Shown: piece after piece, positions 48,768 through 54,800 of the stretch | Numbering within the stretch: the stretch's first letter is position 1 | How the letters are laid out: every line of letters starts with the position of its first letter | Assembly: GCA_905182175.1 (NCBI GenBank) | Contig: CAJJAT010000011.1 | Span: 1 to 64,000, forward strand | From: Flavobacteriales bacterium UBA1494 | GTDB taxonomy: Bacteria > Bacteroidota > Bacteroidia > Flavobacteriales_E > Vicingaceae | Length of the DNA: 64,000 bases | Reading direction: 5' to 3' | Notes under the pieces: model-generated | Databases searched by the model: none | Seen by the model: only the letters and a program-made list of their open reading frames with translations | What the model was told of the DNA's origin: nothing | Position numbers and translations under genes: made by a program

Positions 48768-48840
48768 TGTCCGATGGTGTAACTGGCAACACGTCTGTTT
48801 TTGGTACAGAAGAGTCTAGGTTCGAGCCCTAGTCGGACAA
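48768..48840 (+). tRNA. tRNA-Gln (anticodon TTG)
   Basis: Full cloverleaf of 73 nt: acceptor stem TGTCCGA/TCGGACA, anticodon stem TCTGT/ACAGA (48794-48798/48806-48810), anticodon TTG at 48801-48803 and the T loop TTCGAGC. The discriminator is A48840; CCA is not encoded in full. First of three tRNA genes in a row. Confidence 0.97.
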
Positions 48841-48865
48841 CATAAAGTTCTTTTTAGTTTTTAGG

Positions 48866-48895
48866 TTGCAATTGAATTGAAAAATAGTATTTTTG
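48866..48895 (+). promoter_or_regulatory. Bacteroidota promoter of tRNA-Gly
   Basis: TTG at 48866-48868, 19-nt spacer, then TATTTTTG at 48888-48895. Both boxes and spacing match the Bacteroidota housekeeping consensus TTG-N19-TAnnTTTG. Predicted start is about 7 nt beyond, upstream of the tRNA at 48934. Confidence 0.8.
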
Positions 48896-48933
48896 TCGCC
48901 CTCCTAAAAAGAGTAGTTCTTTAAAATAACAAT

Positions 48934-49005
<72 letters not shown>

Positions 49006-49141
49006 CGCGGTCTCCTTTAGAAGGAAACCTTTATGAAAAGTCAAAAAAATCATAAAAAGTTATTTAGTAGTAAAAATCCTTAGAATTTATTTTAAGGTAA
49101 AAGGAAGTGTCTTCTAAACGTAAGTTTGGAATTTACCAATT

Positions 49142-49226
49142 GCCCGGGTGGTGGAATTGGTAGACACGCAGGACTTAAAATCCTGTGGTCATTGCGACCG
49201 TGCCGGTTCGACCCCGGCTCCGGGTA
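49142..49226 (+). tRNA. tRNA-Leu (anticodon TAA)
   Basis: 85-nt type II tRNA with a long variable arm (GTGGTCATTGCGACC). Anticodon loop CTTAAAA with anticodon TAA; T arm GCCGG/CCGGC; discriminator A49226. TAAGTTTG at 49121-49128, 14 nt upstream, fits the -7 box. A terminator follows at 49231. Confidence 0.97.
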
Positions 49227-49230
49227 CTTT

Positions 49231-49261
49231 AAAGCCTCTTCAGAAATGGAGAGGCTTTTTT
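49231..49261 (+). terminator. Rho-independent terminator after tRNA-Leu
   Basis: AAAGCCTCTTC and GGAGAGGCTTT (49231-49241, 49248-49258) form an 11-bp stem with one G-T pair, followed by a T run to 49261. Confidence 0.85.
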
Positions 49262-49345
49262 GGTTACATAGCTTTCTTATAACTCATCTATTTTACCCAC
49301 CAACTATTAGGGACAATATTCGGGAATCAAGACTAAAAGTTATGT

Positions 49346-49504
49346 TTATGCATAAATATCGGTCAATCTGAAAAGGAAAAATTCGACATTTATCACACCT
49401 CTAAATCGTGATCTGAACGCTTTTATTTTCGCATTGAATAAGTCAACCAACGCATTAGTATCCCTGCTATCAAAACAGTTTAGTATTGTGTCGTAGTTTA
49501 TTTA
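49346..49504 (-). pseudogene. C-terminal remnant of an ISAon1/ISL3-type transposase
   Basis: On the minus strand the frame from ~49504 to the TAA at 49346 reads NYDTILNCFDSRDTNALVDL followed by FNAKIKAFRSRFRGVINVEF and FLFRLTDIYA. This matches the very characteristic end of ISAon1/ISL3-type DDE transposases (FNAKxKxFRxxFRGV, FFLFRL). Everything upstream is lost. Too short for ORF calling, so easily overlooked. Confidence 0.8.
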
Positions 49505-49617
49505 TGTTGTATTCATAATCAACGATATACGACAAAAATAAGAGAAAGCTTTTTTAATTACTATAAGGTTTAATTTTACTAAATCCTGTGTTTTCACTAA
49601 AAGTAAGCACCTCCTTT

Positions 49618-50828
49618 TTAGGCTGAGCTGAATTTTATCTGAAGTGATGGGTTAATTTCTTTCAACCAGTCTTCCTCTGGGTTTTCTAGTAACTTCATCA
49701 CATGAATATAATTGAATAAATGAAGGCGGCAAAAGCTTGCTAAATTAGATAATGACCATTTTCTCTTAATTTTTTTACGAATTACAGTCAAAAATAACTT
49801 TACAATTAAGGTACACAATATTTGGATTTTAATGGCATTTTCATTGTCATCCAAGAAGTATTTTAACGGAAAGTTCTGTTTTAGCTGCTTAAATAAAAGT
49901 TCTATTGACCATCGCTTTTTATAGATCATTGCAATATGTCCTGCATTCATTCCGATAAGGTTAGTGATAAATTCAAAGCAGCACTCGTTTTCACTATCCC
50001 ATTAAGCTATTCTTCTTAATTGAATCTTTTTTAGAAACTTTCCTTTTTCTTTTACATCAACCTCAATGATTTCACCTTTTAGTACTCCATCATCTAAATA
50101 ATCAGGGATTTCATTTTCAGCCACAGACTCAAAAGAGGCATTCTATTTTAGCCTTGTAACAAAGAGTACTCCGCTTGTAGTAAACTCATCAAAAGTTTTG
50201 TAATCATTTTAACTTTTATCAAAAACAGCAATCTTACCGAATTTAATTTTTATGTGCTTTGCAAAGCTTTTATCGTGAACATTTGCAGCGAATAACCAAA
50301 CAAAATGGGATAAATTTTCCTGTAAACTTATTTGTGTGTGAACTTTTATTTCGACTTTTTTTTGACCGTTTGATGGATTTCTACCAACACAACTAAGAAT
50401 TGATTTAAACAATGAAATTATACTAAAATCAATAATTTCTAGTCGATTTTCCCAAGCATACTATTGGCGGCTGTCCAAGATAATCAGACGATAGAAATTA
50501 AGTAACGAATAGTAAATTTCTTAAAAAAAACAAGACAACTTCTTCTTGCATTAGCATCACTTAAGGTGATTCTATGAGGCATGTTTTTGAGCTGAAAGTG
50601 ATTTGTTTTTCCTTTTAAACCTAACACCCCGGCAGCAACTTATTGAAGTAAACTACAATGAGAAATTGTGGAAAATAACATACTAATTAATTGATATGAA
50701 GTGCTAAACTTCTTAGTATAATGATCAGAATTATGTTTTCTAACTGCTGATTTTATCAAATCAAAATTAATTAAAGAAATCAGCTGTCCGAAAACATATT
50801 GTCCAAAAAAGTAGCCACTTTTATTCAT
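49618..50828 (-). pseudogene. Degenerate IS4-family transposase (DUF4372 N-terminus)
   Basis: A full-length but broken transposase. The N-terminal part starts at the ATG 50828 (MNKSGYFFGQYVFGQLISL, DUF4372-like) and stops at 50640. Homology continues through GVLGLKGKTNHFQL and MPHRITLSDANARRSC in a shifted frame. A second open block at 50209-50412 contains FKSILSCVGRNPSNGQKK and VWLFAANVHDKSFAK, and the C-terminal block at 49618-49950 has YKKRWSIELLFKQLKQNFPL, the IS4 YREK signature. At least three stops or frameshifts inactivate it. A 17-nt TTTTTCGGACACTAGTG at 50903-50919 might be part of the left terminal repeat; the right end was not found. Confidence 0.88.
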
Positions 50829-51105
50829 GTAATCTATGTTTCCAAAAACCAAATTACAATAAAGTGAGAAATCCATAATTGGAAATCCAGCTTTTAAAAA
50901 TATTTTTCGGACACTAGTGATTGAGTAACTATAATGCATATCAGTTATTAAAAATTAGAATGCCGAAATAAACCAAATAAAACTACAACATATAGGGTAT
51001 GAATATTCTTAATTCGTTAACCTTCATAAAATGCGTAAATACAGTAATGCGATAAAATCAAACGCTTTGGTTCCCTAATAATACATTAAACCATTTAATA
51101 TAAAC
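50829..51105. other. IS end and upstream flank, no gene
   Basis: Between the broken transposase and the stop of the AlkP fusion. Contains the upstream part of the IS element and ~110 bp of AT-rich sequence. No gene, and no terminator for the minus-strand gene at 51106, is evident. Confidence 0.5.
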
Positions 51106-53676
51106 TTACCCCATCTTATTTCGATGAAGCGATTGATCAATAACCCCTTTCATTTTTTGTAGATCCAAATTCAGCTCCGGTAAAAAAGCGTTTAGCTCAA
51201 AAATGACTTTTTGAGGTTCGTTTATTGCACATGAGTAATCAATAAATATGGTTTCTATGTGTAACTGACTCAACGTAGAACCTTTCACTTCTTCGAGTTG
51301 CTTTTTATAAAAGTCTACTAATTTAAAGGGATAGCTGCTCTTATCCTTGCCACTCATTTTGTGCTGAGAGGCAACAACTTCTTCTACTTTTCTTTCCATA
51401 AAGATGACCTTGTATCGAAAATGAGGCATCAAGAATTTAAGTTGAGGAGAAACTACTTTTACTACTTTTCCATTGGCTTCAAAAATCAACTTCCGATTAC
51501 TAGCGAGTTTTTTAATTCCTTCATGTTCTAAATAACCTTTTGGGTTACTATCATCCGCCTCTCGCTTCCCATCCGTAAAAACAGCAGCTCCTCCTTCGTG
51601 CAACAATTGCATCATCATTGAAGTACCCGATCTAGGAAGACCAGAAACAATGTAAATGGTGCCCCTTAAATTTTCAAGAAACTCTTTACTCACCTCCCTT
51701 TTCAAGGTTGCTTTTTCAATGTTTTTACTGTTGTAGTTGACAAATTCAGCTTCCGAAAAGTTAACTTGAACACCCTGTGATTCTAGATTTGCTAGGCGCT
51801 GCATCACCTTTCTACTTTTTGGCTTTTGCTTTAAACTAATGGAATAGGCTCGAAATGCATCTTCCAACAAATCCAACTTCACTAAGCTTTCTCCCAAGTA
51901 GAAATGAGCCGTTGGGTTAAAAAATTGACTGTTGATTGATTCTAAAAACAATTCAACGGCGTTCTCATAATCCTTACATCCAAAAGCAGATACACCCTTC
52001 AAATACAACAAACTTGAGTTTTCAGGAAAACGCTTTAAAACACGATTTATAAATTCATCTGCTCTTTTAAATTGCTTGTATTTAATTAAAACCTTAGCAA
52101 AACGCTGAGCAGAAAAAGGAGTATCTATTCTCCTTTTAAAGGCATTGTTTGCAATTTCTAACGCTGCGGATTTCTCATTTTTCTCTGCTAAAATAGATGA
52201 CTTTAACGCATTTAACTGCTGAATTTCGTTTTTAATCGATTTTTCCAGCCTTGCAATAATTTGAAGGGCATCATCGTATTTTTTCAATGCTTCGTATGCG
52301 ATGATTAATCGAAGACCAAAGCGAACTGAATTTTCCTTTTCAAACAACACTTCCAATATTGCAGCAGACTCTTTCGGTCGATTTGAACTTAAGTAAACAC
52401 GCGCTAAGTTAAAATCATTCTCAACTCTTGCTCTTTCCAGGGCTACCTCAGCTTTGTCATCGGGCTTTTCAATATAGCCCAGTTCAATTAACATTTCTAA
52501 CGCCTCTTTTGAGGAAGCAGAATCTAATTTCTCTTCAAATTCTCGTTCAATTAAGTCATCCCACGAGTTGATGTATTGAATATTTTTTTCTTTTTTGAAT
52601 ATGTTTAACAAGGGCTTGCCATCCATATCCTTACCCTGAGGCAAATCAAATAGGCTCAATAAAGTAGGAGCAATATCCAACAGCGTAGCCCCGAAAACCA
52701 ATTCATCCTTCTTTATGTCAGGCCCCATTGCAGCAAATACTCCATACGCTCTATGATCGTAAGCGGGAGCAGCAGCTTCCTTTGGAAGATTGAGCAAGCG
52801 ATTGAACCCTGATTCAAACCCGTGGTCAGAAATAAGCATAATCGTAGTGTCGTCATCCACTAAGTCGAGTATCCTTCCTAGCATCATATCATGAAAGCGA
52901 TAAGCGTTATTCACAACATCCTTATAAAGCTCAAATTGCTTATCGTCAATTCCTTTTATTTGTGGAGGATGAAACTTCATAAACCCGTGACAAAAATGGT
53001 CTATGTTATCATAATAGATGGCCATAAAATCCCAATCGGTATTGTCAATTAGCCAAGTTCCTGCATTATGAATCGTCGCGGCTTCAGCTAATATTTTTCC
53101 AACCGAGTTTAATCTTTTATCTTCTTCTTGATTCACTTGGCTGGCAAGCGGCACAAAAGGTAGAATATGCTCATCGGTAAGGTCTCCCGGGTGAACCCTC
53201 AACTTCGAAAAAGTCTCTGATGCTTTTTTCGGAAATACGGTTCCCGTAGCCATTGGCCATTTTTCTCCGTGCGGCTTAGAAGCTTTCTGGTAGAAATTTG
53301 AAACCATAACACCATTTACTGACTCAGCAGGGTGGCTAGGCCACCAACCAACCACATTGGTTTTCAATTTTTGATGACTTAGGATGTTCCAAATGGCAGC
53401 CGTTTTTCGAGAATTATTGCTAACAGGTCGCACACTGCCTGTTGAATAATCTGGCTCTGTGAATCCTAAAACTCCATGCTTATCAGCTAATTTTCCAGTT
53501 GCAATACTAGACCACAGCATAGGAGAAAAAACCGGTTCTAGTGTTGCTAATTTTCCAGATACCCCGTTCTCAACTACTCTTTTTAGCGCTGGCATTTGAC
53601 CACTCTCCATCAGTGGATTGATTACATCCCAATCAGCCGCATCCCAGCCAATTAGTAGTACTTTAGGTTTTGGCAT
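51106..53676 (-). CDS. Alkaline-phosphatase-superfamily / TPR / sulfotransferase fusion protein
   Basis: Three domains in one 856-residue chain. Residues 1-~375 are a type I phosphodiesterase/AlkP-superfamily domain: metal Asp D12 (LLIGWDAADWD), nucleophile region PVFSPMLWSSIATGK, YDNIDHFCHGFMKFHPP, LISDHGFES and a late His (YDHRAYG), so all metal-site motifs look present. Residues ~410-650 are TPR repeats (YLSSNRPKESAAILEVLFEK, YLKGVSAFGCKDYENAVELF, YLGESLVKLDLLEDAFRAYS). Residues ~670-856 are a sulfotransferase-like domain with P-loop GLPRSGTSMMM (G679-) and VIFMERKVEEVVASQHKM, the 3'-phosphate motif. No signal peptide, so probably cytosolic. Directly upstream are a 73-codon ORF (14-nt overlap) and a T9SS protein gene. 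Confidence 0.9.
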   Translation of the reverse strand: MPKPKVLLIGWDAADWDVINPLMESGQMPALKRVVENGVSGKLATLEPVFSPMLWSSIATGKLADKHGVLGFTEPDYSTGSVRPVSNNSRKTAAIWNILSHQKLKTNVVGWWPSHPAESVNGVMVSNFYQKASKPHGEKWPMATGTVFPKKASETFSKLRVHPGDLTDEHILPFVPLASQVNQEEDKRLNSVGKILAEAATIHNAGTWLIDNTDWDFMAIYYDNIDHFCHGFMKFHPPQIKGIDDKQFELYKDVVNNAYRFHDMMLGRILDLVDDDTTIMLISDHGFESGFNRLLNLPKEAAAPAYDHRAYGVFAAMGPDIKKDELVFGATLLDIAPTLLSLFDLPQGKDMDGKPLLNIFKKEKNIQYINSWDDLIEREFEEKLDSASSKEALEMLIELGYIEKPDDKAEVALERARVENDFNLARVYLSSNRPKESAAILEVLFEKENSVRFGLRLIIAYEALKKYDDALQIIARLEKSIKNEIQQLNALKSSILAEKNEKSAALEIANNAFKRRIDTPFSAQRFAKVLIKYKQFKRADEFINRVLKRFPENSSLLYLKGVSAFGCKDYENAVELFLESINSQFFNPTAHFYLGESLVKLDLLEDAFRAYSISLKQKPKSRKVMQRLANLESQGVQVNFSEAEFVNYNSKNIEKATLKREVSKEFLENLRGTIYIVSGLPRSGTSMMMQLLHEGGAAVFTDGKREADDSNPKGYLEHEGIKKLASNRKLIFEANGKVVKVVSPQLKFLMPHFRYKVIFMERKVEEVVASQHKMSGKDKSSYPFKLVDFYKKQLEEVKGSTLSQLHIETIFIDYSCAINEPQKVIFELNAFLPELNLDLQKMKGVIDQSLHRNKMG

Positions 53677-53884
53677 GTTTTTTAGAAATAGATTTTACTT
53701 TTTGCCATGCTTGATGACCAACAGAACCTAATGCAAGAAAAGCCAATGAACCCTTCTCAGAAACTTCAATAGCCTCTCCTCGCTCGTTTACAAGAAACAC
53801 TTCGTTGTTAAACTCCTTCACAACAAATTTAGATTCTCCTTCTAATTTAGTTGGTTTCCAACCAAAACTTTTTTCTCGTGACAC
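53663..53884 (-). CDS. Tiny overlapping ORF with C-terminal hydrophobic/basic tail
   Basis: A 73-codon ORF opening with GTG at 53884, which overlaps the end of the T9SS gene by 38 nt, and ending 14 nt inside the AlkP fusion gene. It encodes a polar N-terminus (SFGWKPTKLEG, NEVFLVNERGEAIEV) and the hydrophobic segment KGSLAFLALGSVGHQAWQ (44-61) followed by KVKSISKKHAK. The tail is reminiscent of PEP-CTERM-type helices (small hydrophobic helix then basic end) but lacks the PEP motif. Position and double overlap favour a real, coupled gene; the GTG start and absent homologue recognition make it uncertain. Confidence 0.6.
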   Translation of the reverse strand: MSREKSFGWKPTKLEGESKFVVKEFNNEVFLVNERGEAIEVSEKGSLAFLALGSVGHQAWQKVKSISKKHAKT

Positions 53885-54800
53885 CCGTTGAGTTTCTAAT
53901 TTCTACTATATAAATTCCTTCTAAGTTCCCTTGCACTGCAACTTGCTTTTGACCGCCAATTATTTCAGACTGCAATAGTTTTCCGCCCAAATCGAAAATG
54001 GATAATACTGAATTTGAGGCTAACTCTGAATTAATTGTTATTCTACCGTTAGAAGCAAAATAATCAAGGTCACTTTTTAAATTTTGACTTGATAGACCCA
54101 CAGCAGAGCCCGTATCGCCTGCTAGTATTGGTGTGTTTGGTGTGGTTTCGTAAGCGAAATCTTTGATTGTAATAGAATCTGAATTACTACTCATATCTAA
54201 CCTTAACCAGCCATAATGAATTGATGTTCCAATAGTAAACTTTACACCCATAAATTTATCCCCACTCCCTGGAAACTGACCAACACTAACTGTGGATGTT
54301 GTAGTTGGTCCATTTATTACTGCTTTACCACCTATTAAAACACCATTGAAAGCTGAAGATGTACTAGTAGTACTAGTTGTAGAATTCCCGTTTGACCAGT
54401 TATTCAAACTATTGTTAATGTTTGCATTTAAGTTCAATGCGGCAGCTACATACGTTGAATTAGTCGATGTTGTAGAACCCGTGGTTGTACTCGAATTACT
54501 ATTCATGATGTTAATGGAAGCATTGACAAGAGAATCAACTTCTGCTCCTTGCACATTAATAATAACTCCGGTTGAGGTTGTTAAGTAATCGATAAACTCA
54601 ATTCTTCCTTCTAAAATTCCATCATTGTTTAAATCAATATCAAAGTAGTCTCCATTGTTCACTAAAATTGTGTCATTAACATTGGTGTAAGCTACTTGAG
54701 CAGAAGCATCGAGAGCAACAACAGAAGCTGCTAAAGCAGAATAATGCTTTAATTTTGACTTCGTAATTCTTTTTTTTACAGAATATTTATTTTTTTCCAT
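53847..54800 (-). CDS. Ser/Thr-rich T9SS-sorted surface protein
   Basis: A 317-residue secreted protein with an N-terminal segment KHYSALAASVVALDASAQVA, an unusual basic plus hydrophobic signal. A conserved-looking block NDTILVNNGDYFDIDLNNDG follows, then a low-complexity Ser/Thr/Asn-rich stretch (residues ~96-150, with NSSTTTGSTTSTNST and NSTTSTTSTSS). HYGWLRLDM and DFAYETTPNTPILAG form a further conserved pair that I associate with PEP-CTERM-like proteins. The last ~75 residues (TINSELASNSVLSIFDLGGK, GIYIVEIRNSTGVTRKKFWL) are a T9SS type A domain, although the usual PNP motif is missing. Overlaps the tiny ORF downstream. Confidence 0.85.
   Translation of the reverse strand: MEKNKYSVKKRITKSKLKHYSALAASVVALDASAQVAYTNVNDTILVNNGDYFDIDLNNDGILEGRIEFIDYLTTSTGVIINVQGAEVDSLVNASINIMNSNSSTTTGSTTSTNSTYVAAALNLNANINNSLNNWSNGNSTTSTTSTSSAFNGVLIGGKAVINGPTTTSTVSVGQFPGSGDKFMGVKFTIGTSIHYGWLRLDMSSNSDSITIKDFAYETTPNTPILAGDTGSAVGLSSQNLKSDLDYFASNGRITINSELASNSVLSIFDLGGKLLQSEIIGGQKQVAVQGNLEGIYIVEIRNSTGVTRKKFWLETN

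What the first reader, a model, noticed from the sequence alone, without database searches (positions are those of the whole stretch)
51106..54800. Candidate surface-modification unit: Ser/Thr-rich T9SS protein, tiny ORF and AlkP-TPR-sulfotransferase fusion
Three minus-strand genes overlap in series (38 nt, then 14 nt), so they are co-translated. The first encodes a secreted T9SS protein with a ~55-residue Ser/Thr/Asn-rich stretch full of hydroxyl acceptors, the last a chain with an AlkP-superfamily domain, TPR repeats and a sulfotransferase-like P-loop domain. A cassette of acceptor plus modifying enzyme is a plausible reading, but the fusion lacks a signal peptide, so modification would have to be cytosolic or act on another substrate.
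Basis: partly seen in the sequence, partly recalled or inferred. Interest (0 to 1): 0.6.

Follow-up and report, generated by a model that had tools for sequence, protein, structure and literature searches.

The report
Leader-linked surface-protein sulfation cassette (predicted)
A three-gene cassette found across Bacteroidota and in a few other bacterial phyla pairs secreted surface proteins that carry an unusual, undescribed leader peptide with a micro-protein and a three-domain enzyme that probably sulfates them, and the leader was found only in genomes that have the enzyme.

Summary
In detail: T9SS protein 53847-54800, tiny ORF 53663-53884 and AlkP-TPR-sulfotransferase 51106-53676 overlap by 38 and 14 nt. 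The three form a conserved module. The tiny ORF is a real gene (dN/dS 0.04), lies directly upstream of the fusion in 93 of 100 loci, occurs in no fusion-free genome searched, and is fused to the enzyme in several genomes. The T9SS protein is adjacent in 51 of 67 fully flanked loci. The key finding is new: these surface proteins carry a special leader (K-L-x-x-Y-S-A, Ala/Gly/Ser-rich). A leader-only model hits 29 of 395 Bacteroidia genomes: all 29 are among the 35 with the fusion, none among the 360 without. Sampled fusion-free genomes hold the same mature protein behind ordinary signal peptides. PAPS use is supported by APS-kinase genes beside the enzyme in five loci. Best model: the TPR-armed enzyme, with the micro-protein, recognises the leader-bearing preprotein in the cytosol and sulfates it before or during export. 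Sulfation, acceptor and AlkP role are inferred. No description was found in the held literature.

The parts
53847..54800 (-). surface protein gene (317 aa): leader, mature domain with Asp/Asn-rich 'DLNNDG' loop and 'HYGW' motif, T9SS type A C-terminal domain
54693..54800 (-). special leader MEKNKYSVKKRITKSKLKHYSALAASVVALDASAQ (K-L-x-x-Y-S-A motif, weakly hydrophobic Ala/Ser/Gly-rich core, AxA-like end)
   Evidence: leader-only HMM hit 54693-54779, E=5.8e-8; composition statistics
54345..54524 (-).
53865..54050 (-). T9SS type A sorting domain (residues 251-312)
   Evidence: TIGR04183 1.2e-7; PF18962 1.4e-5
53663..53884 (-). micro-protein gene (tiny ORF); GTG start at 53884 inside the T9SS gene is kept in the close homologue L033 and in L034 (ATG nearby in L035, L036); an internal GTG at 53821 is possible
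53690..53809 (-). conserved core of the micro-protein, consensus (E)(I/V)PxxGSLGLLALGxxGLxAWRxxR
   Evidence: A5 profile hit E=3.7e-15; column frequencies
51106..53676 (-). AlkP-TPR-sulfotransferase fusion enzyme (856 aa)
52642..53661 (-). AlkP/NPP-type domain; D12, S51, D226, H230, D284, H285, H308 invariant in 49 of 49 relatives
51778..52419 (-). TPR superhelix (about residues 420-633), resembles the O-GlcNAc transferase TPR domain
51109..51669 (-). sulfotransferase domain (residues 670-856): 5'-PSB loop GLPRSGTS 679-686, 3'-PB R762 and S770, invariant E717

Best explanation
The cassette is one copy of a dedicated biogenesis system for a family of surface proteins. Shown by sequence: (1) the surface preproteins carry a distinctive leader (K-L-x-x-Y-S-A followed by a weakly hydrophobic Ala/Gly/Ser-rich core) that was found only in genomes with the fusion enzyme; (2) a conserved micro-protein with a PEP-CTERM-like glycine/leucine helix nearly always accompanies the enzyme and is sometimes its N-terminus; (3) the enzyme joins an apparently intact NPP/PafA-like AlkP domain, an OGT-like TPR superhelix and an apparently intact PAPS-type sulfotransferase. 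Inferred: the enzyme sits in the cytosol near the membrane through the micro-protein, its TPR array holds the leader-bearing preprotein, the sulfotransferase adds sulfate to it (Tyr is the better acceptor guess) before or during Sec export, and the AlkP domain edits or cleans up (for example acts on PAP or on a phospho/sulfo group). After export the protein is displayed by T9SS in Bacteroidota, or carries an IPTL-CTERM signal in Nitrospirota.
For: Leader exclusive to fusion genomes: 29 of 35 fusion-positive and 0 of 360 fusion-negative genomes (Fisher 2e-38); a thirtieth, G065, has a weaker leader. Same mature protein with an ordinary hydrophobic signal peptide in the fusion-free genomes sampled (leader FLIWM 21% against 42%, AGST 43% against 29%). 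Leader proteins also lie far from the fusion (G054, G067, G170, G240, G417). Micro-protein in 93 of 100 loci, in 22 of 282 genomes, all 22 fusion-positive; fused in-frame to the enzyme in L174/G065 and L090, and by open-frame length in G111 and G259. APS kinase next to the enzyme in L069, L125, L126, L130, L131 and cysC-cysD-cysN-sulfotransferase clusters beside a separate AlkP-TPR gene in L125, L126; APS kinase in 34 of 35 fusion genomes against 149 of 360 others. Catalytic residues conserved. AF2 model mean pLDDT 86.7; AlkP part resembles PafA and NPPs (Z 27.6, rmsd 3.4 over 321 residues for PafA), TPR part the OGT TPR (Z 20.4, rmsd 2.9 over 218 residues).
Against: No biochemical evidence. 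Acceptor, timing and AlkP role are unknown. Five fusion-positive genomes lack a recognisable leader (G156, G232, G322, G357, G410; three of these have split enzymes and G322 is at a contig edge), and 16 of 67 fully flanked loci lack the surface gene nearby. Gammaproteobacterial genomes with the enzyme gave no leader hit. The leader model was trained on proteins at fusion loci, and the cassette moves horizontally, so part of the co-occurrence is joint inheritance. The leader may still be exported by ordinary Sec. Genomes in one class are not independent, so the Fisher values overstate the evidence.
Confidence: 0.5

Rival explanations
1. Export-targeting system: the leader, micro-protein and TPR-bearing enzyme mainly deliver the preprotein to the translocon, as Asp2 does in accessory Sec, and the enzymatic domains add a secondary modification.
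For: Leader is less hydrophobic than the ordinary signal peptides it replaces; leader is tied to the enzyme across Bacteroidota and Nitrospirota regardless of the final sorting signal. In SRR adhesins, Asp2 is needed for transport and also O-acetylates the substrate's glycan (PMC5578698).
Against: No dedicated SecA/SecY was among the recurring neighbours (genomes were not searched for one); the catalytic residues of both enzyme domains are strictly conserved, so catalysis matters.
Confidence: 0.2
2. The enzyme sulfates (and the AlkP domain remodels) a glycan or lipid to which the surface protein is later attached; the protein is a client or receptor of that modification, not the acceptor.
For: PF13469-type sulfotransferases often act on carbohydrates (general knowledge); T9SS type A proteins are commonly anchored to A-LPS (general knowledge); no conserved acceptor residue stands out in the mature domain.
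Against: Does not explain why only the leader of the surface protein changes with the enzyme; the system persists with an IPTL-CTERM sorting signal in Nitrospirota.
Confidence: 0.15
3. A mobile cassette of functionally loosely related genes; the leader is only a lineage-specific signal peptide that hitchhikes with the enzyme.
For: Fusion 93% identical between G000 and G019 although a housekeeping-type protein is 76%; congeners lack it; tRNA cluster and transposase remnant next to it in the window.
Against: Gene order and strand vary (57 same strand, 21 opposite) while the partnership holds; leader proteins remote from the enzyme and up to 18 per genome; the leader replaces ordinary signal peptides in homologous proteins; micro-protein fused to the enzyme.
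Confidence: 0.1

Closest known systems
SRR glycoprotein / accessory Sec system (GspB, Hsa; GtfAB, Asp1-5, SecA2-SecY2) of Gram-positive bacteria
   Same: Surface protein with its own special signal peptide, preprotein modified inside the cell, modifying protein linked to export (Asp2), accessory proteins Asp4 and Asp5 in the complex, all encoded together (PMC5578698, PMC5076819).
   Different: No shared families seen: leader motif, micro-protein and AlkP-TPR-sulfotransferase are unrelated; modification would be sulfate, not sugar; no SecA2/SecY2 seen beside the cassette; Gram-negative hosts.
PEP-CTERM / exosortase and IPTL-CTERM / XrtH sorting
   Same: Micro-protein core (IPxxGSLGLLALGxxGLxAWRxxR) looks like a PEP-CTERM helix; signal-plus-enzyme pairs found by co-occurrence; Nitrospirota leader proteins carry an IPTL-CTERM.
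   Different: PEP-CTERM score below cut-off (best 16.5 against 20.7 bits); the motif is in a separate micro-protein; exosortase frequency does not differ with the fusion (22 of 28 with, 21 of 30 without).
O-GlcNAc transferase / SPINDLY (TPR-transferase enzymes)
   Same: A TPR superhelix attached to a transferase; the TPR part matches OGT.
   Different: Transferase is a P-loop sulfotransferase, with an added N-terminal AlkP domain.
NPP (ENPP/Xac NPP) and PafA-type AlkP enzymes
   Same: Fold (Z 26-28) and two-metal residue set D, S/T, D, H, D, H, H.
   Different: Ser at the nucleophile position, no apparent signal peptide, fused to TPR and sulfotransferase; substrate unknown.
PAPS sulfotransferases of Pfam PF13469 / PF00685
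   Same: GLPRSGTS loop, Arg...Ser eight apart, NPxGYxE motif.
   Different: Part of a three-domain enzyme coupled to a leader-bearing surface protein.

Membership tests
PAPS-dependent sulfotransferase (PF13469/PF00685) | Pfam match and 5'-PSB / 3'-PB motifs | tested here: met
   48 of 49 relatives match PF13469 at E<=0.001, 43 match PF00685; the window protein alone is sub-threshold; G679-S686 loop, R762 and S770 invariant or nearly so
PAPS-dependent sulfotransferase (PF13469/PF00685) | Access to PAPS (APS kinase in the genome) | tested here: met
   APS kinase in G000 and in 34 of 35 fusion genomes; adjacent in five loci
PAPS-dependent sulfotransferase (PF13469/PF00685) | Sulfotransferase activity | not testable with these tools
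   needs an enzyme assay
AlkP superfamily, NPP-like | Fold and metal/nucleophile residues | tested here: met
   PF01663 2.5e-29, Z 26-28 to PafA and NPPs, residues 49 of 49
T9SS substrate | C-terminal T9SS sorting domain | tested here: met
   TIGR04183 31.6 bits against cut-off 23
T9SS substrate | Ordinary Sec signal peptide | tested here: inconclusive
   leader differs in composition from the ordinary signal peptides of fusion-free homologues; no signal-peptide predictor available
PEP-CTERM / exosortase system | PEP-CTERM motif over cut-off | tested here: not met
   best 16.5 bits against 20.7 in Pfam; 15.3 against 16 in NCBIfam
PEP-CTERM / exosortase system | Cognate exosortase co-occurring | tested here: not met
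   exosortase-like genes in 22 of 28 fusion genomes and 21 of 30 without; no association
SRR adhesin / accessory Sec | Special signal peptide tied to dedicated machinery | tested here: met
   leader found only in fusion genomes; analogous, not the same motif
SRR adhesin / accessory Sec | SecA2/SecY2 and GtfA/GtfB in the locus | tested here: not met
   not among recurring neighbours nor in the loci read; whole genomes were not searched for them

The most novel reading that the evidence does not exclude
A previously undescribed bacterial surface-protein pathway: a new class of leader peptide, read by a micro-protein and a TPR-bearing AlkP-sulfotransferase, directs cytosolic sulfation of the preprotein as part of its export, in several phyla and independent of the final sorting signal (T9SS or IPTL-CTERM). 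It would be a Gram-negative, sulfate-based counterpart of the accessory Sec glycoprotein system, built from unrelated parts.
Probability: 0.35. Interest if true: 0.9.

Novelty: new variant of a known kind. Interest (0 to 1): 0.75.

Why it matters
Protein sulfation in bacteria is rarely described. Here a leader sequence predicts which proteins would be modified, the enzyme is identified, and PAPS genes point to the donor, so the claim can be tested in cultured marine flavobacteria. The leader rule (all 29 hit genomes hold the enzyme, none of 360 without it) also gives a signature for annotating a set of surface proteins that are now only called T9SS proteins, and a micro-protein family that the libraries searched do not name.

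Tried and rejected
Micro-protein as a PEP-CTERM/exosortase component: motif below cut-off, exosortase not associated. Ser/Thr-rich stretch as conserved acceptor: not conserved; Ser and Thr not enriched. Tyr enrichment (6.4% against 3.7%, p=6e-4 with 12 residues tested, 93 against 12 sequences) is only a hint because of relatedness and the small control set. Micro-protein as a classic transmembrane segment: median 17-residue hydropathy 1.09, only 12% reach 1.6, so an amphipathic or peripheral helix is likelier. Micro-protein and leader as related sequences: profile comparison negative. The micro-protein helix has no confident placement in the AF2 model of a natural micro-protein/enzyme fusion (helix 17-31 at low to middling pLDDT). 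Sulfotransferase domain against solved structures by sequence: no match; the structure searches are filled by the AlkP and TPR domains, so that domain's fold was not tested on its own. A first leader-extraction script mis-cut many leaders and was replaced, which still left out about 20 sequences. Literature searches for T9SS plus sulfotransferase and for AlkP-TPR-sulfotransferase found nothing relevant; subscription journals and preprints are not held.
Full report
OBSERVATION. The three minus-strand ORFs and both overlaps are as described (sequence). The T9SS protein has an NCBIfam-valid type A sorting domain. The fusion has PF01663 (2.5e-29), TPRs and a weak Sulfotransfer_3 match; with relatives the sulfotransferase assignment is firm (48 of 49 match PF13469 at E<=0.001). 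The tiny ORF had no family over any cut-off.

NEIGHBOURHOOD. Relatives of the fusion were found first in related genomes, then in a scan of species genomes that gave at least 523 relatives, of which the best 80 were kept: Bacteroidota, plus Halobeggiatoa, Parabeggiatoa, Thiotrichaceae and Nitrospirae. Reading the loci, the micro-protein ORF lies directly upstream of the fusion in 93 of 100 cases with enough upstream sequence, usually overlapping its start, and the T9SS-family protein is a neighbour in 51 of 67 loci with at least 2.5 kb on both sides, on either strand. A few loci come from the same genome fetched twice, so these counts are slightly inflated. No other neighbour family is nearly as frequent (69 loci for the surface protein, 13 for the next, duplicates removed).

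MICRO-PROTEIN. It is under strong purifying selection (dN/dS 0.04; fusion 0.08, T9SS gene 0.15; G000 against G019). Its core is nearly invariant: G-S-L-G-L-L-A-L-G-x-x-G-L-x-A-W-R. A profile of it hits 22 of 282 genomes; all 22 are known to have the fusion, and the hits lie at the fusion. It is fused to the N-terminus of the enzyme in L174/G065 and L090, and by open-frame length also in G111 and one copy in G259. It resembles PEP-CTERM helices but fails the cut-offs, and exosortases do not track the fusion.

LEADER. The T9SS-family mature domain occurs in genomes with and without the fusion, but the N-termini differ. With the fusion it begins with K-L-x-x-Y-S-A-x-A and an Ala/Gly/Ser-rich core; in the fusion-free genomes sampled (L135-L144, L151-L154) the same domain follows an ordinary hydrophobic signal peptide. 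Composition differs strongly (FLIWM 21% against 42%, AGST 43% against 29%, p about 1e-9 and 3e-7; extraction was by pattern and some sequences were mis-cut or left out). A model of the leader alone (A3, 33 positions) over the same 395 genomes hits 29, all within the 35 fusion-positive genomes. G065, a thirtieth, has a weaker leader next to its enzyme. Within family f1 and genera g36 and g52, genomes without the fusion gave no leader hit, so the two come and go together. G067 has 18 leader hits on many contigs; those read all carry the same mature family. Because the leader model was trained at fusion loci and genomes are related, the p-values are indicative only.

BEYOND BACTEROIDOTA. Two Nitrospirae genomes with the enzyme have leader proteins; the one tested ends in an IPTL-CTERM over the cut-off. 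So leader and enzyme are independent of T9SS. In Halobeggiatoa (L104) and Thiotrichaceae (L112) the neighbour encodes a group II-like reverse transcriptase continuing into a leader-like stretch and a similar surface domain; the leader profile itself did not hit these genomes.

ENZYME. All AlkP metal and nucleophile residues (D12, S51, D226, H230, D284, H285, H308) and the sulfotransferase loop, R762, S770 and E717 are conserved in the 49 relatives, with only S683 varying to Thr in three. The AF2 model of a natural micro-protein/enzyme fusion has mean pLDDT 86.7. APS-kinase genes lie beside the enzyme in L069, L125, L126, L130 and L131. In L125 and L126 the sulfotransferase is a separate gene in a cysC-cysD-cysN-sulfotransferase cluster next to an AlkP-TPR gene. 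APS kinase occurs in 34 of 35 fusion genomes against 149 of 360 others (strong hits counted by hand from the table).

MOBILITY. The fusion is 93% identical between the window genome and G019 of another genus, although a conserved housekeeping-type protein is 76% identical; five congeners lack the fusion, and the two tested are 89-91% identical in that protein. In the window the cassette lies near three tRNA genes (48768-49227) and a transposase remnant.

INTERPRETATION. Shown: a conserved three-part module, a leader found only with the enzyme, apparently intact active sites, and a genomic link to PAPS. Inferred: sulfation of the leader-bearing preprotein in the cytosol before or during export, with TPR docking and membrane proximity through the micro-protein. 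The acceptor is unknown; Tyr is enriched over fusion-free homologues, Ser and Thr are not. The AlkP role is open. The nearest functional analogue is the accessory Sec system, where Asp2 both modifies and exports SRR adhesins (PMC5578698), but no shared family was seen.

Noticed in passing
L104:9968-11641 (-) and L112:10092-13754 (+): In Halobeggiatoa and Thiotrichaceae, next to the fusion enzyme, a group II-like reverse transcriptase (TIGR04416 E=4e-34 and 8e-22, below its cut-off) continues in one reading frame into a leader-like stretch and a surface-protein domain; very unusual architecture.
   Followed up: partly
window 48768-50939: tRNA-Gln, tRNA-Gly and tRNA-Leu genes and a degraded DDE transposase (49618-49950) just downstream of the cassette, suggesting an insertion hot spot.
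   Followed up: partly
L125, L126 (also L127, L128, L129): Natural split forms: AlkP-TPR and sulfotransferase as separate genes; these loci lack a recognisable micro-protein.
   Followed up: partly
L061:5320-5919 and similar ORFs in 13 loci: A probable ECF-type sigma factor gene (judged by eye) recurs near the fusion in some lineages.
   Followed up: no
L176, L178 (G417): A Nitrospirae genome has two leader proteins ending in IPTL-CTERM-like signals instead of a T9SS domain.
   Followed up: yes
G067 (L155-L165): One genome has up to 18 leader-bearing proteins scattered over many contigs, suggesting expansion of the surface-protein family.
   Followed up: partly
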